A program made the translations under genes and the position numbers. Of a DNA stretch of 64,000 nt, positions 53,614-64,000 are shown one piece after another. Within the stretch, counting starts at the first letter, position 1. The number at the start of each line of letters is the position of its first letter. Source of the stretch: Chitinophaga pinensis DSM 2588 (GTDB lineage: Bacteria; Bacteroidota; Bacteroidia; Chitinophagales; Chitinophagaceae); the NCBI RefSeq assembly GCF_000024005.1, contig NC_013132.1, positions 5,202,001 through 5,266,000 on the forward strand, written 5' to 3'. Under the pieces are notes generated by a model that was not told the origin of the DNA, made no database searches, and saw nothing but the letters and a program-made list of their open reading frames with translations.

Positions 53614-53696
53614 GCCCAGATGGCGGAACTGGTAGACGCGCTGCACTTAGAATGCAGTTCCCCTGTGGTGTGCAGGTTCGATTCCTGTTCTGGGCA
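53614..53696 (+). tRNA. tRNA-Leu (anticodon UAG), attachment site of the island
   Basis: An 83-nt class II tRNA. The acceptor stem GCCCAGA/TCTGGGC is perfect, the anticodon stem CTGCA/TGCAG closes a loop CTTAGAA with anticodon TAG at 53648-53650, and the variable arm is long. The T loop is TTCGATT with stem pairs GCAGG/CCTGT. No CCA is encoded. The recombinase gene of the adjoining island ends inside this tRNA on the opposite strand, so the tRNA 3' part is the integration site. Confidence 0.93.
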
Positions 53697-55224
53697 CAAA
53701 AGCGGAAAGGTCGGAAAAGTCTCCGACCTTTTGCTTTTTATAGTCGTCGGAGCCCGCTCTGGGCCTGCTTATCAGCTCGAGGATGACGTTTGGTTCTGTG
53801 GTTCGAAATTTGTTTTCTGAAAAAATCAGCTTTTCTGCGAAGATCGAACCAATGATTTGTTTTTTGCCTATTGGGGAAGCTGTGATATAGCGATTAGCAA
53901 TATTCTTTATGATTTCGCCGCCTTGGGAAAGGTATTCCTGGTAGTTGTCGTTGGTGGATATTAATTTAGTCTTCTTCTTTTCCAGGTCTTCTATCTTCTT
54001 GGTAAGGTCTGTCTTAATCTCTTTAAATTCTTCTGCGGTAAATTCATCGTCCAGGCGCAAAGAACGGGCGTTTTGTATTCTTGTATAGAGCTTGTCTATT
54101 TCAGCCTGTGTTTCTTTTAGCTCCTGCTCCTTCCCCTGGTTATCCTTCTTTAGTGAATTACTGATAAGCTGACAATAATAGTCGATGATAGGTGCATTGA
54201 CTGCTATCTGGCATAACTGTCTAACAAATGCCTCGTTAGCGGTATCTGCCCGAAAACGCTCTTTACAAAACTTTACGGATTGGCAGTGGTAGTAGTAATA
54301 GATACCGCCGTTACCTTTTGATCCACTCCCACTTAATAGTCTTCCGCAGCGAGGGCATATTAGGAAACCTCTTAGAGGGAGTTGCTGATCAATTTCTGTG
54401 AAGGTATTGACCCTGACATTCCGCTTCTTCCCTTTTAGCACGTCCTGAACATCGTCAAATAGACCTTCGGGGATGATAGGCTCATGGATACCTTTTACAC
54501 AATGAGCGGGTTCGTTCTTATAGGCAGCTATAAAGACTTTCCCGCAATAAACAGGATTACGGACGAGGCTCCAGAACTGGCTACGACCTATTTTTAGTCC
54601 CTTTCTATTTGCCATACGCCTTAGTGTATCAATATCCCATATACCCCTGGATAGCTCTTCGAACGCCCAACGGACTGTCTCTGCCTTTTCATTGGGGATA
54701 AGGAAGGGCTTGTTCTGGGCGTCCCGTCCATTCTTATAGCCAATTGGGGCAATACCCAGGTATCTTCCCTCTTTCTTTGCTCTCCGCATACCGTGAAGTG
54801 TATTTAGGGCTCTCCGGTCATTTTCTACCTCCGGTGTAGTAAGATAGATTGCCAGCATGATCTTGCTTTCTGGTATATCCATGTCCAAAGGCTGTTCGAT
54901 GGACTGAGGTTCTACAGATAGCCTTTTCAGCTTACCGATCATTTCGTAGGCAGCGGCGACATTTCGGGAGAAGCGATCCCATTTAGAAAATAATATCAGA
55001 TCAACAATGCCTTTGTTTTTGCTGATTACATGCAGCATCTTCTGAAACTCCGGCCTGTCAAACGTCTTTGCCGAATGGTCTTCCCTGTAAATGCCAACTA
55101 CCTGTACATTCTCTTTCTCACAATAACGTATTAATACTTCCTCTTGATGGGCCAAGCTATAACCGTCAGCTTGCTCGTCTGTGCTTACTCTTGGATATAG
55201 AAATGCTTTTCTTTGATTGATCAT
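53647..55224 (-). CDS. Large serine recombinase (resolvase/invertase-type integrase) ending inside tRNA-Leu
   Basis: 525 residues from the ATG at 55224 (MINQRKAFLYPRVSTDEQADGYS); an upstream start at 55269 is possible but breaks the family start. The N-terminal resolvase domain has the catalytic Ser in YPRVSTDEQ, followed by the recombinase domain (APIGYKNGRD... RRMANRKGLKIGRSQFWSLVRNPVYCG) and a zinc ribbon (CPRCGRLLSGSG...YYHCQSVKFCKERF). A coiled-coil stretch follows (KDNQGKEQELKETQAEIDKLYTRIQNAR). The last 16 codons and the stop (53647-53649) are antisense to the tRNA and give the peptide FVPRTGIEPAHHRGTAF. This overlap is a standard sign of integration at the tRNA. The protein likely integrates and excises the island. 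Confidence 0.9.
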   Translation of the reverse strand: MINQRKAFLYPRVSTDEQADGYSLAHQEEVLIRYCEKENVQVVGIYREDHSAKTFDRPEFQKMLHVISKNKGIVDLILFSKWDRFSRNVAAAYEMIGKLKRLSVEPQSIEQPLDMDIPESKIMLAIYLTTPEVENDRRALNTLHGMRRAKKEGRYLGIAPIGYKNGRDAQNKPFLIPNEKAETVRWAFEELSRGIWDIDTLRRMANRKGLKIGRSQFWSLVRNPVYCGKVFIAAYKNEPAHCVKGIHEPIIPEGLFDDVQDVLKGKKRNVRVNTFTEIDQQLPLRGFLICPRCGRLLSGSGSKGNGGIYYYYHCQSVKFCKERFRADTANEAFVRQLCQIAVNAPIIDYYCQLISNSLKKDNQGKEQELKETQAEIDKLYTRIQNARSLRLDDEFTAEEFKEIKTDLTKKIEDLEKKKTKLISTNDNYQEYLSQGGEIIKNIANRYITASPIGKKQIIGSIFAEKLIFSENKFRTTEPNVILELISRPRAGSDDYKKQKVGDFSDLSAFVPRTGIEPAHHRGTAF

Positions 55225-55423
55225 TGTTGTAGTCTTTAAGGTGATGGATTTGTGGATTTGATTGTTCATAGATATTCAGATCAATAGCGGCCAGACGATG
55301 TATGAAATCAATTATTATTGTAACTTCCTCGTCTGTATAAGCGTATTGATCTGCCTGAAGGATTCGTTTTGCTTCCTCGATTGAGGGCTTGGCGGGTAAC
55401 TGACGTTGGACTTCATGTTTCAT
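55166..55423 (-). CDS. Small conserved protein coupled to the recombinase
   Basis: 85 residues from the ATG at 55423; an in-frame TTG at 55432 is less likely. The core is IEEAKRILQADQYAYTDEEVTIIIDFIHRLAAIDLNIYEQ, a pattern seen next to serine recombinases in Bacteroidota (recognised by position, not by database). Its 3' end overlaps the start of the recombinase gene by 59 bp, so translation is probably coupled. It may assist or control recombination directionality; this is inference. Confidence 0.65.
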   Translation of the reverse strand: MKHEVQRQLPAKPSIEEAKRILQADQYAYTDEEVTIIIDFIHRLAAIDLNIYEQSNPQIHHLKDYNNDQSKKSISISKSKHRRAS

Positions 55424-56749: not shown

Positions 56750-57160
56750 TTATTCTGCGTTTTTATGTTTTATGTAACTGGTTAGCATTTCTTTAAGCTC
56801 TTTTCTACTGACAGGCTTGGCTAGTGTACCAATGATATCCATTTCACGTGGTGGTTTAACTGATTTGATCCTACTCGCATCCGTTAGGATAATTATCGGA
56901 ATTATAGCTAGTGGACTATCACTGAAAATGACCAGGAAATCAGGATCAGAAAAGTCTTTGTACCATTCCGAGATAATAAAATTGGGCGGCCCTTTTTGCG
57001 TATAACATAAATATTCATCTATCAACTCATAGAAATTGGAACAAATGATTGGTATATAGATATCCATATTGTCCAGAACGTGTGCCAAGCCAGACCTAGT
57101 TAGCCGGTCTTCGTCAACCAAACAAATTGATAGCTTCTTTTTAGCTCTTACGGGAATCAT
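56750..57160 (-). CDS. Receiver-like protein with Glu at the phosphoacceptor position
   Basis: A 136-residue protein with receiver-domain layout: LVDEDRLTRSGLAHVL (acidic pair near residues 16-17), beta-3 end NFIISEW with Glu65 where the phospho-accepting Asp would be, TDAS (Thr93) and LAKPVSRKELKEML (Lys115). The rest of the fold looks intact. Glu at this position mimics constitutive activation in some studied cases, or the domain is a pseudo-receiver for protein contacts. It lies downstream of a histidine-kinase-like gene and is coupled to the 68-residue paralogue. Confidence 0.72.
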   Translation of the reverse strand: MIPVRAKKKLSICLVDEDRLTRSGLAHVLDNMDIYIPIICSNFYELIDEYLCYTQKGPPNFIISEWYKDFSDPDFLVIFSDSPLAIIPIIILTDASRIKSVKPPREMDIIGTLAKPVSRKELKEMLTSYIKHKNAE

Positions 57161-57299
57161 AGTGGAATTTTTACTCCTTGACTGTACTAAGGAATAATGC
57201 CTAGGAATTATTAAACAATGGTTTGTGTGTCAGTCTTAAGCTCTATTTCGGTGGCACATTTGATCTATCCAATGCACAGAGCATACATTACGGCCACAG

Positions 57300-58241
57300 C
57301 TATCTCAAAAGGCATGGTAGGCTGGCTTGAATGACTGTTTCGTATTTTTCACTAAGTACTCGTATCACGCCATCTAACGCATCAATACATTTCTTCGCCA
57401 TATATAAGTTCGCTCCCCAGTTATTAGCCAGTGTTATCGAACCATTAAGCAGTTTAAAAAGATTTTCAACATCGGCATTGGACATTTGCTTTCCCTCACT
57501 TTTCACGCTAATTGAAAGCCGTTCAGCTACTGCTTCGACTAATATGAACACCCTTGTCGATTTTCTACTGTGGGCATATGCAACGTGTATAAGACTGGAC
57601 ATTATTATGTCCAGCATGACCTTATCCGTTAGTAGGTTTTGACTTGATTCAACTGTGTTCCTTATCTCGACCACTCTGCCTGTTGCATCTTCGAATAATT
57701 TAAATGGGGCTGTCACCTCATCAATAAAGATTGCCAGATTGAACTTTGCCATATTGGGATTTAGGGTGAGATCACCTCCACTAAACTTGACCTTGTGATT
57801 AATATCCCGTAATAAGTGCCTACTCCGGGCCATAATCAGACGAAATGTGCTTATGTGACAGGCTATCTCTGGCCTGGTAGCGAAAAGATGAAATTCATGC
57901 TCTTCCATCAGCCTATTCATCGCAATTTCAGCAAGTCCCAATTGAGCATCAATCATATCTATCATCACTAATAACAGCTTGGCATGTAGGCAGTTGGCAA
58001 AATCTTCATCTGTTCGAGGTTGCTGTGATGAACTTGCCAAAATATGCCCAGCCTCAATCATTCTTTGAAGATCAACATTGAATGATGCCGTAAAAACCGC
58101 TTTCATACTCTGAAGAATAGACTCCAAGCTATACTTCATGAAAACCTTATTGAATACCTGTAAAGGATATTCGGTTTCGCTTTTAGTAAGCAATGACTGG
58201 CTAGTCCCACTCTTTTCAGAGTAAGTCATTTGTTTCTTCAT
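57300..58241 (-). CDS. Histidine-kinase-like protein with degenerate ATP-binding boxes
   Basis: A 313-residue soluble protein. N-terminal helical part (DHp-like; HAKLLLVMIDMIDAQLGLAEIAMN), then a region resembling HATPase: VMLDIIMSSLIHVAYAHSRKSTRVFILVEAVAERLSISVKSEGKQMSNADVENLF, followed by WGANLYMAKKCIDALDGVIRVLSEKYETVIQASLP. The canonical NLLxNA box reads SLIHVA and the DxGxG box reads KSEGK, so ATP binding looks impaired. No phospho-His in an E-L-R/H-E-L-x-x-P context is seen. It is probably a structural relative, not an active kinase; partner is the receiver-like gene 139 bp downstream. Confidence 0.6.
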   Translation of the reverse strand: MKKQMTYSEKSGTSQSLLTKSETEYPLQVFNKVFMKYSLESILQSMKAVFTASFNVDLQRMIEAGHILASSSQQPRTDEDFANCLHAKLLLVMIDMIDAQLGLAEIAMNRLMEEHEFHLFATRPEIACHISTFRLIMARSRHLLRDINHKVKFSGGDLTLNPNMAKFNLAIFIDEVTAPFKLFEDATGRVVEIRNTVESSQNLLTDKVMLDIIMSSLIHVAYAHSRKSTRVFILVEAVAERLSISVKSEGKQMSNADVENLFKLLNGSITLANNWGANLYMAKKCIDALDGVIRVLSEKYETVIQASLPCLLR

Positions 58242-59558: not shown

Positions 59559-59629
59559 TGTAAGTACCCCTTAACGGCAGACAGTTTAAAATTAGATAAA
59601 AGTGTTAATTTTAAACTAATCTGTTCATC

Positions 59630-59920
59630 ATGAAAAAAACAAGATTTACAGAATCCCAGATTGTTTCTATCCTTAAACAACAAGAATCCGGGATACCGAC
59701 CAAAGAGATCTGCCGACAACACGGCATTTCAGAAGCGACTTTCTATAATTGGAAGAGTCGTTATGGAGGTATGGAAGCCTCAGATGTAAGGCGTTTGAAA
59801 GATCTAGAAGAAGAAAATGCGCGTCTGAAAAGGATGTATGCTGATGTATCCCTGGATAATCAACTTCTTAAAGATCTCTTCACAAAAAAAGGCTGGGCCC
59901 TGCCACCCAAAGACAAATAG
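59630..59920 (+). CDS. IS3-family transposase OrfA (HTH)
   Basis: 96 residues with an HTH and coiled coil: MKKTRFTESQIVSILKQQESGIPTKEICRQHGISEATFYNWKSRYGG, then RRLKDLEEENARLKRMYADVSLDNQLLKDLF, as in IS407-group OrfA. Near the end, A-AAA-AAA-G at 59884-59891 is a classic -1 slippery site; the -1 frame continues into OrfB, so an OrfAB fusion transposase is expected. Confidence 0.92.
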   Translation: MKKTRFTESQIVSILKQQESGIPTKEICRQHGISEATFYNWKSRYGGMEASDVRRLKDLEEENARLKRMYADVSLDNQLLKDLFTKKGWALPPKDK

Positions 59921-59952
59921 CGCATGAGCTGGTTAGTGAAGAAGGTATTTCT

Positions 59953-60741
59953 GTGAGTAGGGCCTGTAGACTTGTATCCTTTCCACGATCTCAATTCTAT
60001 TACAATAGCCGTAAGAATGATAATGCAGTTATTATTGCATTGCAGGAATTGGCTTTTAAGCATCCTAATTACGGCTTCAGGAAGCTATCCTCTTATTTGC
60101 GGAGGGCAGGCCATAAATGGAATCATAAACGGATTTACCGTGTTTATAGGCTATTAAAACTCAACAAACGTAGGAAAGGGAAAAGACGATTACCCGCCCG
60201 GATAAAGCAACCACTGATCAGGCAACAAATGATTAACGTTAGTTGGAGTATGGATTTTATGAGTGATAGTATGACTGGTAATAGACGCTTCCGGACTTTT
60301 AATGTAATGGATGACTGTTCAAGAGAAGCATTGGCTATTGAGATCGATACATCCCTATCTGCCAAGAGGGTTACGCGGGTACTGGACCGAATATTGACAA
60401 CACGTGGTAAGCCGAATAGTATACGAGTAGATAATGGACCGGAGTTCACTTCTACAAAGTTTTGCCTATGGTGCAAAACGAATAATATCATCGTTCAATA
60501 CATCCAGCCAGGTAAGCCAATGCAAAACGGATATATAGAAAGGTTTAACCGTCTATATCGTGAGGCTGTTCTTGATGCATACTTATTTTTTGACCTTAAC
60601 CAGGTACGAGAGTTAACAGAGGAGTGGCTGGAAGAATACAATCAGCGTAGACCACATGAAGCATTAAATAATCTTACCCCAGAAGAGTGGAAAAACATGG
60701 TTCTTGAAGAAACGATTCTCCAGAAGAATACTGTTTGCTAA
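59953..60741 (+). CDS. IS3-family transposase OrfB (DDE integrase core), GTG start or made by frameshift
   Basis: 262 residues in the -1 frame relative to OrfA. The DDE residues are in WSMDFM, RVDNGPEF and NGYIERFN; the C-terminus has EWLEEYNQRRPHEALNNLTPEEW. The GTG at 59953 is a weak start; the natural product is probably the fusion from 59630 by -1 frameshifting at 59884-59891, which reads through with no stop. Confidence 0.9.
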   Translation: MSRACRLVSFPRSQFYYNSRKNDNAVIIALQELAFKHPNYGFRKLSSYLRRAGHKWNHKRIYRVYRLLKLNKRRKGKRRLPARIKQPLIRQQMINVSWSMDFMSDSMTGNRRFRTFNVMDDCSREALAIEIDTSLSAKRVTRVLDRILTTRGKPNSIRVDNGPEFTSTKFCLWCKTNNIIVQYIQPGKPMQNGYIERFNRLYREAVLDAYLFFDLNQVRELTEEWLEEYNQRRPHEALNNLTPEEWKNMVLEETILQKNTVC

Positions 60742-60789
60742 ACGGGGTACTTACACTTGACCGGCCTTCGGTTACATTTACCAGTTTAA

Positions 60790-60912
60790 GTTGGCTATGG
60801 CTATTTTTTAGCTGGAAAAAAGATCGATATCATCTATAATAAAAGCGAACAAGCCATTATACAGGCATCAAAATCAATTATAGAGACCGGTACTGAAAGT
60901 ATTATTTATTAA
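60790..60912 (+). pseudogene. C-terminal coding remnant between the IS and the reverse transcriptase gene
   Basis: An open frame without a start codon reads GYGYFLAGKKIDIIYNKSEQ... and ends ESIIY at a stop 26 bp before the reverse transcriptase ATG. An in-frame stop lies at 60787-60789, so it is not read from the IS. It may be the tail of a gene disrupted by decay or frameshift, or chance. Low confidence. Confidence 0.3.
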
Positions 60913-60938
60913 CTCTCCCACCAATATTCCTATAGAAT

Positions 60939-63900
60939 ATGTTAAGATTAGAGGATCAATTTTTAGATAAAGAAAACTTCTTTATAGCATTTAAGAAAAT
61001 TAGTTTCTATATAAAGCAACTGAATGAATGGTATGATCCATTAGTATTAGCTGAATATGAAGCGACCCTTCCCAAGAGAATTGCCGACATAATCGACTTA
61101 ATAAAAAAGGATCAATACACGCCAAAACCGATCGAGCCACTCCCCTTCCCAAAGAAAAGTAGTTCTACAGGTGAAAAGCGTATCAGACCATATTATAACA
61201 TTAGCCTTGATGATCAGCTTATCTGGATGGCAATAGTTAACGTTATTGGGAAATATGTAGAAGATCAAATGCCAGACTGGAGTTATGGCAATCGATTATA
61301 TAGACCTGTTTGGTTTGAAAAAAACACCCATGATGAAAGAATAATATTCAAAAAAGGGTCTCTCAAAAACACGTCTAAATACGTTTATAGGAAATGGGGA
61401 CAGAGTTGGCCTTTATATAAAAGACATATCGCATTAACAATAAAAGTCTTAGCCAAAACGACTCACTTCAAAACAACAGACATACATGATGAAAAAGAGC
61501 TATCGGTCTATGAACAAGCGGCGGCCACAAAATTCGAGAGCGCTAAATACTTGAAGAAAGACTATTGGAAAAAAGGCCAATATTCGAAACTCAGCTGGGT
61601 AAGTCTAGATTTTGAGAAATTTTTTCCAACTATAAACTCATTTAAAATAATAGAAAATATTACAGCTTGCTTAACGAAAGAAAATGGCTCAAGAAGAGAT
61701 GATGTTAATCTGATTTTAAAGTTGATAGATAAAATGCTAACTTTTCCATTAAATACTAAAGGATGGAATCAGCAGGATCTTCGGGATAGCAATCTTTTTG
61801 ATTTACCCAACGTTCAAAATTACAGGGGCATACCAACTGGATTGGTTGTCGGTGGTTTTTTAGCTAACGTAGCGGTCTTAGATCTTGATAAAGCAGTTGA
61901 TGAATTTGTCAATAAAAATAAGAATATAGCGGTATTCAAATATGTAGATGATCATATAGTACTTGCCCAATCAAGAGAAGCACTTCTTACATTCCTAAAT
62001 TTTTATAATAATAATATATCAAAGCTTAACGCTTCTTTAAAATTCCAACCATCCAAAATCGAACCGGCAAACTTTTTAAGTTATGACGAAAATAATGGAT
62101 TTGCATATACGAATGAAGAAGATGTCAGCTATGAATTAGATGTAGAGTTTCCGACCCCTTTGATGACCAATACTTTGAAAAAAGTCTCACATATCAACAA
62201 CATTGACTTCAATCTACTGGAAAAAGAAGATATTGACAATATTGAAATCGACCTTAAGCACCTACTACTTGCAGAATTCCCAAAAACTGAAATTCGGCCC
62301 GATACGAAGATGTCATTTGCTTCGAGCAAGCTATGTAGGTTGGCACTAGAAATTAAACCGGATTTCTCAATTATTGATCCATCGTATGAAAATAACAAAG
62401 ATGCTGTTGAGAATTTATATAAAAAATTGAAAGAAGGCCAAAAGAGAATTCCGAAAGATAAAAAAGAAGAACAAGAATTCAAGAATAAACTAAAAGACAA
62501 GGCAGGGAGGCATTTTATAGCTAACACACTAGCGCTAGAAATTAGCAAAGTCCGAAAAAAACAAGAAGGGATTTTCAACTTGCTCTTAAAAGCATTAAAA
62601 GAAAATCCCGATAAAGTAAAGTTATGGAAGAAATGCATTGAGTTTTGTTTTCAAACAGGCTACCCTGGTATTAATGAGATACTGAATACAATCGGAAAAT
62701 GTAGTATCCATGAGCGCAGCTTTACTTACCTAATTTCGTACTGCTTTACAAATATACAAGTCAACCTTGAAAAATCATTTTTCTTACTAAATGATGATCA
62801 ATCACTATTCTGGAAAACTCATTGTTCTTATGAGTTTATTCGTAATTCAATTGACATTAACACGAAATCATTCTCATCATTATCCGGAAAATATCCTTTC
62901 TCTAAACAAGCGCGCGAAAATCTAAATACATCAAAGAAATTCGTTCTGGAACAGCTTCCTGAGATATTCAAGCTATCAACCCAAACGGAGTTTTTAAATA
63001 TTAAAAATGTTATTAGATCCAGAAAGGCACTTAAAAATAAAATATACAGCACAAATCAAATCTGGTATTACTTATCTAATTACAACTGGAGATTAAAAGA
63101 TGCCTTCTTTTCGCAAACCGTAAATAAAGTTGATTTAAGCGATCCTTTGAGCTGGAGTATTTTGTCACTTTTTCCACATCTAATCCCTTACAAAAAAATC
63201 ACAGAAATCATTGATAATATACCAGCAAAAGGAAATAAGTTACTGCATCCATATTCAGAAATGTCAAATCTCATAAGTAGTAACGGATTTACATACGATA
63301 TGCTTAAATCTCTCAAAGAAAAAAGCAACACAAGATCTTATCTTAAATGTGTTAAACATTATCCTTCAATTCATAAAATTCTAACACGAGCCGATACAAA
63401 ATATATAAGCATGGAGCAGTGGCTTGATAAGTTGCTCTTTGAAAGTCGCGATTTAAATTGGATAGACCCCAGATTGACTGAATGGTCGCTAATCGAGATA
63501 ATAAAACAAATTTCATCTAGCTTATTAAAAGTTAATCGACAAGTCAATAAAAATATTTTTTCTGCCGTTAGTAAATCTAACTATAAGTATGTCCACCCTT
63601 CAAATTATCTAATTCCAGTGGAATGGGGTACTCAGCATCATTTAAACTGGGCTGAATGGGAAAAAATTGTTAGTAAGCATAAAATCAAACTTGCTGATAA
63701 AAGACACTTTATTTATGATCATCGCTTTTACCCTATTCAATCACGTTGGAAGAGTACCATATTACCGTTTATGGGAAGTCCTGAAATACCAATTGTGATT
63801 GGATTATCAATACTCTTAATTAAATTGTTATCAAAAACTTTCACCTGGCCCCCTGCTGCTAACAAGATAACTTTTATCGATCAACTATATAGTAGCGCAT

Positions 63901-64000
63901 ATATTGCTCTTGAGAATGAGCCTATATCATCAGACTTGCGAATTCTTCTGAATGCAATCTTTTCAAAAACAGATTTTAACGACATTTTCTATCAAAATGA
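60939..64000 (+). CDS. Large reverse transcriptase-domain protein, UG/Abi (DRT)-like, C-terminus beyond the window
   Basis: The frame is open from the ATG at 60939 to the right edge: 1020 complete codons, translated by hand with no stop. RT motifs: RPYYNISLDDQLIWMAI (residues about 82-98), YGNRLYRP (about 119), motif A WVSLDFEKFFPTI with Asp224, motif B GIPTGLVVGGFLAN from Gly297, and motif C YVDDH (residues 335-339, catalytic Asp337 and Asp338). Thereafter no group II intron maturase or retron signature is visible; instead long helical stretches (VKLWKKCIEFCFQTGYPGINEIL; HPSNYLIPVEWGTQHH) extend beyond residue 900. A C-terminal helical repeat region is known for UG/Abi reverse transcriptases, which give phage defence. 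The IS lies 183 bp upstream and may affect expression. Low G+C. Subfamily cannot be named without a search. Confidence 0.85.
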   Translation, partial: MLRLEDQFLDKENFFIAFKKISFYIKQLNEWYDPLVLAEYEATLPKRIADIIDLIKKDQYTPKPIEPLPFPKKSSSTGEKRIRPYYNISLDDQLIWMAIVNVIGKYVEDQMPDWSYGNRLYRPVWFEKNTHDERIIFKKGSLKNTSKYVYRKWGQSWPLYKRHIALTIKVLAKTTHFKTTDIHDEKELSVYEQAAATKFESAKYLKKDYWKKGQYSKLSWVSLDFEKFFPTINSFKIIENITACLTKENGSRRDDVNLILKLIDKMLTFPLNTKGWNQQDLRDSNLFDLPNVQNYRGIPTGLVVGGFLANVAVLDLDKAVDEFVNKNKNIAVFKYVDDHIVLAQSREALLTFLNFYNNNISKLNASLKFQPSKIEPANFLSYDENNGFAYTNEEDVSYELDVEFPTPLMTNTLKKVSHINNIDFNLLEKEDIDNIEIDLKHLLLAEFPKTEIRPDTKMSFASSKLCRLALEIKPDFSIIDPSYENNKDAVENLYKKLKEGQKRIPKDKKEEQEFKNKLKDKAGRHFIANTLALEISKVRKKQEGIFNLLLKALKENPDKVKLWKKCIEFCFQTGYPGINEILNTIGKCSIHERSFTYLISYCFTNIQVNLEKSFFLLNDDQSLFWKTHCSYEFIRNSIDINTKSFSSLSGKYPFSKQARENLNTSKKFVLEQLPEIFKLSTQTEFLNIKNVIRSRKALKNKIYSTNQIWYYLSNYNWRLKDAFFSQTVNKVDLSDPLSWSILSLFPHLIPYKKITEIIDNIPAKGNKLLHPYSEMSNLISSNGFTYDMLKSLKEKSNTRSYLKCVKHYPSIHKILTRADTKYISMEQWLDKLLFESRDLNWIDPRLTEWSLIEIIKQISSSLLKVNRQVNKNIFSAVSKSNYKYVHPSNYLIPVEWGTQHHLNWAEWEKIVSKHKIKLADKRHFIYDHRFYPIQSRWKSTILPFMGSPEIPIVIGLSILLIKLLSKTFTWPPAANKITFIDQLYSSAYIALENEPISSDLRILLNAIFSKTDFNDIFYQN

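What the first reader, a model, noticed from the sequence alone, without database searches (positions are those of the whole stretch)
60939..64000. Long UG/Abi-like reverse transcriptase in a tRNA-Leu island: candidate antiphage system
A hand translation gives 1020 or more uninterrupted residues with YVDDH, LDFEKFFPTI and GIPTGL motifs, so catalytic residues are intact. No intron, retron or maturase features are seen. Its length and helical C-terminal part fit the DRT/UG-Abi group, and its place in a recombinase-borne island fits defence cargo. The subgroup and C-terminal domain are unknown, so novelty is possible.
Basis: partly seen in the sequence, partly recalled or inferred. Interest (0 to 1): 0.9.

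Follow-up and report, generated by a model that had tools for sequence, protein, structure and literature searches.

The report
Primase-less UG6 reverse transcriptase–nitrilase defence system
A bacterium carries, on what looks like a mobile island with other antiviral genes, an intact reverse transcriptase paired with a nitrilase enzyme: it resembles a known but untested kind of anti-virus suicide system, in an unusual form without the primase gene that most of its relatives have.

Summary
The ORF at 60939 is an intact reverse transcriptase (RT) running 62 codons past the window (1082 aa). PADLOC profiles file them as RT_UG6 (E 6e-139) and RTasNitrilase (2e-87). Profiles of both find DRT1 (PDB 9YFD). 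The nitrilase tetrad and DRT1's lid lysine are invariant in 35 of 35 aligned, own included.

Unusual: 48 of 56 related loci also have a DnaG-like primase gene upstream of, or fused to, the RT. The window's system and its six nearest relatives do not, and no such primase was recognised in their genomes. Two careful trees nest this clade among primase-bearing systems, so loss is likely; a quick tree did not resolve it.

It lies in a probable ~25-kb tRNA-Leu island with Gabija and GmrSD genes. Best reading: an abortive-infection UG6 system, probably protein-primed like DRT1, with its effector in a second gene. No function was tested. New variant of a known kind.

The parts
60939..64000 (+). UG6-type reverse transcriptase, residues 1-1020 of 1082; the gene continues past the window to L002:12187 (window-equivalent 64187). 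RT core about 1-410, then a mostly helical part. Its partner lies wholly outside the window at L002:12184-13086 (+): a 300-aa nitrilase with a 4-nt ATGA overlap, tetrad E63-K129-E136-C174 and lid motif K285-x-x-P288.
59559..60755 (+). Insertion sequence, IS3-like by inspection (two ORFs, 59630-59920 and 59953-60741; no family search run), with a 4-bp flanking duplication CTTG; seven ~100% copies in the genome, this one included. No primase remnant is seen beside it.
60756..60938 (+). 183-bp leader between the IS and the RT start; no Rfam match, no significant similarity to the upstream DNA of six sister loci; holds a 40-codon open tail without a match among the relatives' ORFs.
53614..53697 (+). 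tRNA-Leu at the left end of the probable island; window 53690-53715 is repeated 25/26 at L003:6778-6803.
53647..55269 (-). Large serine recombinase (Resolvase, Recombinase and zinc-ribbon domains).

Best explanation
It is a two-gene UG6 defence-associated RT system: an RT with a helical C-terminal part plus a nitrilase effector encoded as a separate protein. Inferred working: the RT, without a template and primed on one of its own residues, adds short DNA to itself. The DNA-bearing RT binds nitrilase subunits and orders them into an oligomer whose active site is covered by the C-terminal KxxP lid. A phage replication event disturbs the complex, the nitrilase opens and destroys or makes a small molecule, and the infected cell stops before phage are released. 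Shown here: intact genes, family, homology to DRT1 in both parts, conserved catalytic and lid residues, linkage, genomic setting, and absence of the primase. Inferred from DRT1: priming mode, oligomer, lid control, trigger and cell death. The clade most likely lost the primase that other UG6 systems keep, so it must start DNA synthesis without it.
For: RT_UG6 profile E 5.8e-139 over residues 110-1074; nitrilase RTasNitrilase E 2.1e-87. A nitrilase ORF follows the RT in 54 of 56 related loci, one of them as a fusion; the other two end at contig edges. Profiles of relatives hit DRT1 9YFD: RT E 1e-19, the match reaching its YVDD (ending at 325); nitrilase E 1.2e-28, with K285 on K1219; C174 falls on C1116. 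D324/D325, C1116 and K1219 are needed for defence in DRT1 (PMC13275509, sections read). E63, K129, E136, C174, K285 and P288 are invariant in 35 of 35. Purified DRT1 and DRT5 make protein-linked DNA from dNTPs without an added RNA template. Defence neighbours: GajA, GajB and a GmrSD protein here; Shedu, AbiEii and pAgo genes upstream in 3 of 4 sister loci scanned.
Against: No assay of a UG6 system turned up in my searches and none was run here. DRT1's priming serine S402 is not conserved in other class 3 RTs, and the fixed Ser/Thr of this clade at 410-417 face no Ser in three DRT1 relatives, so the priming residue is unknown. The KxxP-type lid is visible in two of those three DRT1 relatives, not in the third (L080). 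Losing the primase could mean loss of function: RT frames are broken in 2 of 6 sister loci (L022, L024). A separate nitrilase may not assemble as a fused one does. The IS upstream could have altered expression.
Confidence: 0.6

Rival explanations
1. The RT still needs a primase-made primer and borrows the host's housekeeping DnaG in place of the missing dedicated primase.
For: The dedicated primases keep the CHC2 zinc-site and Toprim E/DxD residues in 27 of 27 aligned (of 47 separate genes), so primer synthesis is probably their job; all seven primase-less genomes searched give a DnaG-like match.
Against: Purified DRT1 and DRT5 start DNA synthesis on protein (paper).
Confidence: 0.15
2. A decaying, inactive remnant: the clade lost its primase and the system no longer defends.
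For: RT frames are broken in 2 of 6 sister loci (L022, L024); an IS sits 183 bp upstream here.
Against: The window RT and nitrilase are full-length with the invariant catalytic residues; the clade spans three Bacteroidota families, and 25 further proteins of about full length at 31-48% identity, genomic context unknown, are in the database (set used).
Confidence: 0.12
3. An RNA-templated system like class 2 DRTs, with a noncoding RNA near the RT.
For: Class 2 DRTs and retrons work this way (papers listed).
Against: No Rfam match except the tRNA; the leader has no significant similarity to the upstream DNA of six sister loci (best E 0.05, opposite strand); in primase-bearing loci the RT starts within about 10 nt of the primase gene's end, mostly inside it, leaving no room between, though an RNA upstream of the primase gene was not looked for.
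Confidence: 0.06
4. Not defence: a metabolic nitrilase coupled to an RT with another cellular role.
For: The nitrilase model's nearest solved folds are metabolic nitrilase-superfamily enzymes.
Against: Sparse distribution: a UG6 match at E <= 1e-30 in 1 of 394 other genomes of the phylum sample, and in the genus only own and G016 of 36; defence neighbours; sequence match to the DRT1 nitrilase.
Confidence: 0.07

Closest known systems
UG6 RT with RTasDnaG-like and RTasNitrilase (PADLOC-DB; that the UG/Abi survey defined the group is recalled)
   Same: RT family, nitrilase gene directly downstream and usually overlapping, catalytic residues.
   Different: The DnaG-like primase gene found in 48 of 56 related loci is missing from the locus, and none was recognised in the genome.
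DRT1 (UG1), PDB 9YFD, PMC13275509
   Same: RT, helical part and nitrilase; D324/D325, C1116 and lid K1219/P1222 have counterparts D337/D338, C174, K285/P288.
   Different: DRT1 is one polypeptide of 1229 aa primed at S402; here the nitrilase is a separate protein and no S402 counterpart was identified.
UG5-nitrilase
   Same: RT associated with a nitrilase; the nitrilase part matches RT_UG5-nitrilase (E 6.5e-32).
   Different: The RT itself reached no UG5 profile at E 0.001.
AbiK, Abi-P2, AbiA
   Different: About half the length; no nitrilase partner (recalled).

Membership tests
UG6 DRT | RT matches the RT_UG6 profile best | tested here: met
   E 5.8e-139 against next best 8.4e-23 (Drt1a)
UG6 DRT | Intact RT catalytic Asp residues | tested here: met
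   D224, D337, D338 identical in 75 of 75 UG6-like RTs
UG6 DRT | Associated nitrilase with E-K-E-C tetrad | tested here: met
UG6 DRT | Associated DnaG-like CHC2/Toprim primase (usual; not shown to be required) | tested here: not met
   absent from the locus; in the genome only a 674-aa-frame DnaG-like match (E 8e-38) and a weak one (E 2e-7)
UG6 DRT | Antiphage activity | not testable with these tools
   needs plaque assays
DRT1 (UG1) | RT and nitrilase in one polypeptide | tested here: not met
   separate ORFs with ATGA overlap
DRT1 (UG1) | Priming serine S402 | tested here: inconclusive
   fixed Ser/Thr at 410-417 face no Ser in three DRT1 relatives; the region aligns poorly and the 9YFD letters there were not seen
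DRT1 (UG1) | C-terminal nitrilase lid (K1219, A1223) | tested here: met
   K285 aligns with K1219 and is invariant in 35 of 35; the residue facing A1223 is Pro
Group II intron maturase | Score above the family cut-off | tested here: not met
   45.2 bits against 300
Retron | Match to a retron RT profile or a retron RNA family | tested here: not met
   none of the RT's six PADLOC matches is labelled retron; Rfam gave only the tRNA

The most novel reading that the evidence does not exclude
UG6 systems come in two priming modes: in the three-gene form the DnaG-like primase makes the primer for defence DNA, while in the clade of this window the primase was lost and the RT switched to priming on its own residue, with DRT1's nitrilase lid control kept across two separate proteins. 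The family would then be a natural before-and-after of a switch from primase-primed to protein-primed DNA synthesis.
Probability: 0.2. Interest if true: 0.72.

Novelty: new variant of a known kind. Interest (0 to 1): 0.5.

Why it matters
Class 3 DRTs, which include the nitrilase-linked ones, are called the least characterized in the DRT1 paper, and the nitrilase substrate and full trigger are unknown even for DRT1. A natural system in which the effector is a separate 300-aa protein, the lid residues are conserved and the primase is absent lets each part be purified, mixed and swapped. That makes two open questions directly testable: how the DNA adduct controls the nitrilase, and what the dedicated primase does in other UG6 systems.

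Tried and rejected
Viral contigs: two scans, with the protein and with alignment A1, found no relative; phage records none; plasmids one partial match, Vibrio, 24%. The first genome-contig scan with the single protein found none; the alignment scan gave 56 loci. L067 and L074 carry the same strain name and may be two pieces of one system.

The idea that the IS replaced a primase gene here: not supported. No primase letters remain beside it, and six sister loci lack the gene as well (I did not search those for this IS).

The idea that the open tail between IS and RT is a cut third gene: it is 40 codons with a stop before it in the right flank, and has no match among the relatives' ORFs; uninformative.

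Loss versus later gain of the primase: the quick tree with all rows put the rows labelled primase-bearing on one side of a branch with support 46, which would fit ancestral absence. The careful RT tree (first 520 residues; four long-branch rows and eight more rows removed; its bootstrap had not fully settled) and the careful nitrilase tree (which carries long-branch warnings) nest the primase-less clade; in their bootstraps the labelled rows form one side in only 2% and 0% of 200 trees. L070, which lacks the primase, and in the nitrilase tree L067, which cannot be judged, were labelled primase-bearing there. Loss is likely, not proven; the DRT1 outgroup branch is very long.

Candidate priming residue: Y601 is fixed in 30 of 30 RTs of the clade (25 of them database proteins of unknown context), absent in the 45 other UG6 RTs aligned (L070 among them) and Tyr in three DRT1 relatives; a second alignment agrees, 28 of 28 against 0 of 24. 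It is one of 16 clade-specific columns, and at several others (18, 229, 334, 561) DRT1 agrees with the other side. Post hoc; a lead only.

A loose lid pattern matched 53 of 55 nitrilase ORFs; the other two hold the motif in a form the pattern missed.

Foldseek and VIA-align did not list 9YFD; that library ends April 2026, so the absence says nothing. The UG/Abi survey (10.1093/nar/gkac467, PMC9226505) is not held, so what it says of UG6 is recalled. Paper searches (listings) showed no experimental UG6 study; PMC12632851, PMC13213688 and PMC13275509 have no 'UG6' in their main text (term searches).

Full report
What is there. The window is bases 5202001-5266000 of a 9.13-Mb genome held as one contig. 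The genus is probably Chitinophaga: a same-genus genome (G016) carries an RT-nitrilase pair with the same ORF lengths and nitrilase score as the Chitinophaga dinghuensis pair; this is an inference. The ORF at 60939 runs off the window with 1020 codons. The flank shows one RT of 1082 aa followed by a 300-aa ORF that starts in the RT's stop codon (L002:12184). The stop-free length is far beyond chance.

Family. PADLOC gives RT_UG6 at E 5.8e-139 for the RT and RTasNitrilase at E 2.1e-87 for the partner. Pfam sees only RVT_1 in the RT and nothing in the partner. The group II maturase model fires weakly, 45 bits against a 300 cut-off; a published survey reports that domain name in 93% of UG6 RTs in complete genomes (PMC8934634, passages). 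The RT alone has no PDB sequence match at E 0.01. A profile of 53 RTs finds DRT1, 9YFD, first (E 1e-19), then group II RTs (best 1.8e-7); the nitrilase profile finds only 9YFD (E 1.2e-28). In the alignments the RT match ends on DRT1's YVDD at 325, nitrilase C174 meets C1116 (single-sequence match), and K285-x-x-P288 meets K1219-x-x-P1222. The DRT1 paper (Main, five results sections and Discussion read) shows that D324/D325, C1116 and K1219 are needed for defence, that DNA is added without template onto S402, and that residues 1218-1221 lie over the nitrilase pocket. E63, K129, E136, C174, K285 and P288 are invariant in all 35 nitrilases aligned: own plus 34 of the 54 loci with one.

Structure. 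AlphaFold2 models: RT mean pLDDT 85.7, pTM 0.87, an RT core followed by a mostly helical part from about residue 411; nitrilase 91.8 and 0.91. The RT model matches group II and DGR RTs best over its core and aligns over longer stretches with AbiK, Abi-P2 and AbiA; residues beyond about 560 were barely tested. The nitrilase model matches nitrilase-superfamily enzymes.

Relatives and the missing gene. Fifty-six loci came from public genomes. In 54 of 56 a nitrilase ORF follows the RT: 25 with exactly a 4-nt overlap, 52 within -149 to +107 nt, one fused (L054), one 1515 nt away because the RT frame is broken (L063); the other two loci end at contig edges. In 47 of 56 a CHC2/Toprim gene of mostly 330-400 aa lies directly upstream, mostly overlapping the RT, and in one more (L033) it is fused to the RT. 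PADLOC already has this partner as RTasDnaG-like, so the three-gene form is known. Its zinc-site and Toprim E/DxD residues are invariant in the 27 of 47 that I aligned. It is missing in L019-L024, the closest relatives of the window by tree, and in the window's own locus; it also looks lost in L070, and L067 cannot be judged (contig edge). tblastn with 27 primases found nothing in these flanks at E 1e-3, with a positive control working. Searching own plus the six sister genomes gave matches no better than E 5e-42, mostly in longer, DnaG-sized frames, against 4e-75 to 2e-118 for the dedicated gene in three control genomes; I did not examine every weaker match, and sister assemblies are drafts.

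Direction of change. A careful RT tree of 45 rows and a careful nitrilase tree of 54 rows, rooted on three fused DRT1 relatives, show the seven primase-less members as one clade (100/100 in both) inside the primase-bearing family (nesting branches 95/94 and 95/100 for RT; 99/99 and 100/98 for nitrilase). An earlier quick tree with long-branch rows did not resolve this and leaned the other way (support 46). Loss on the stem of this clade is the better supported history. No gene cluster shared by these seven loci was seen in its place (clusters of three or more loci).

Setting. The tRNA-Leu 3' end is repeated 25/26 bp at L003:6778-6803, suggesting an island of about 25.1 kb that starts with a serine recombinase. 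Similar sequence occurs at three other genome sites and a partial copy lies further right at L003:13352, so the boundary is a candidate. Between lie the RT-nitrilase pair, a GmrSD-type protein, GajA and GajB (Gabija), and an HSP90-like ATPase with a ComEC-like neighbour. Shedu, AbiEii and pAgo genes stand upstream of the RT in three of four sister loci scanned; the fourth (L024) gave no match. The RT stretch is 33% GC against 46% in the window before the tRNA.

How it works. The parts and their conserved residues argue for DRT1-like action: template-free DNA on the RT, a lid-controlled nitrilase and cell arrest. The steps beyond gene content are inferred. Without the dedicated primase the RT must prime on protein, as purified DRT1 and DRT5 do, or use the host DnaG. 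The first is more likely. The priming residue is unknown.

Verdict. An intact UG6-type RT-nitrilase pair in a defence-rich, probably mobile region; the family is known, no functional study was found in the searched library, and this primase-less two-gene clade is not described in what I could read. New variant of a known kind.

Noticed in passing
L002:18842 to L003:3091 (GajA at L100:842-3184): A complete Gabija pair, GajA 780 aa (E 4e-248) and GajB 628 aa (E 1e-219), in the same probable island.
   Followed up: partly
L002:13419-15302: A single-protein GmrSD-type enzyme directly after the nitrilase, also matching Orf5 and HEC-06 defence models.
   Followed up: partly
L003:3368-6523: An HSP90-like ATPase (weakly like BbrUII/MutL) next to a weakly ComEC-like protein at the right end of the probable island; perhaps an undescribed two-gene module.
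   Followed up: no
L003:13352-13372 and G000:C1:4389890, 3145379, 7590123: Further copies of tRNA-Leu end or terminator-like sequence; the region may be a tandem of insertions, and other sites may hold kindred elements.
   Followed up: no
L054 and L033: Natural fusions in relatives: RT-nitrilase in one 1270-aa ORF (Praeruminimicrobium) and primase-RT in one 1467-aa ORF (Proteiniphilum).
   Followed up: partly
L034, L040, L048, L052, L056, L059, L065, L068, L069 (downstream) and L045, L053, L063, L073 (upstream): A gene that looks like a DnaQ-type exonuclease (by inspection, no family search) next to UG6 operons in 13 proteobacterial loci, a possible fourth partner; five more loci have another exonuclease-like gene.
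   Followed up: no
L070:5700-6992: The Mesorhizobium tianshanense UG6 locus appears to have lost its primase independently.
   Followed up: partly
window 56750-58241: A small receiver-domain-like protein and a histidine-kinase-like ATPase protein, both below Pfam cut-offs, between the recombinase and the IS.
   Followed up: no
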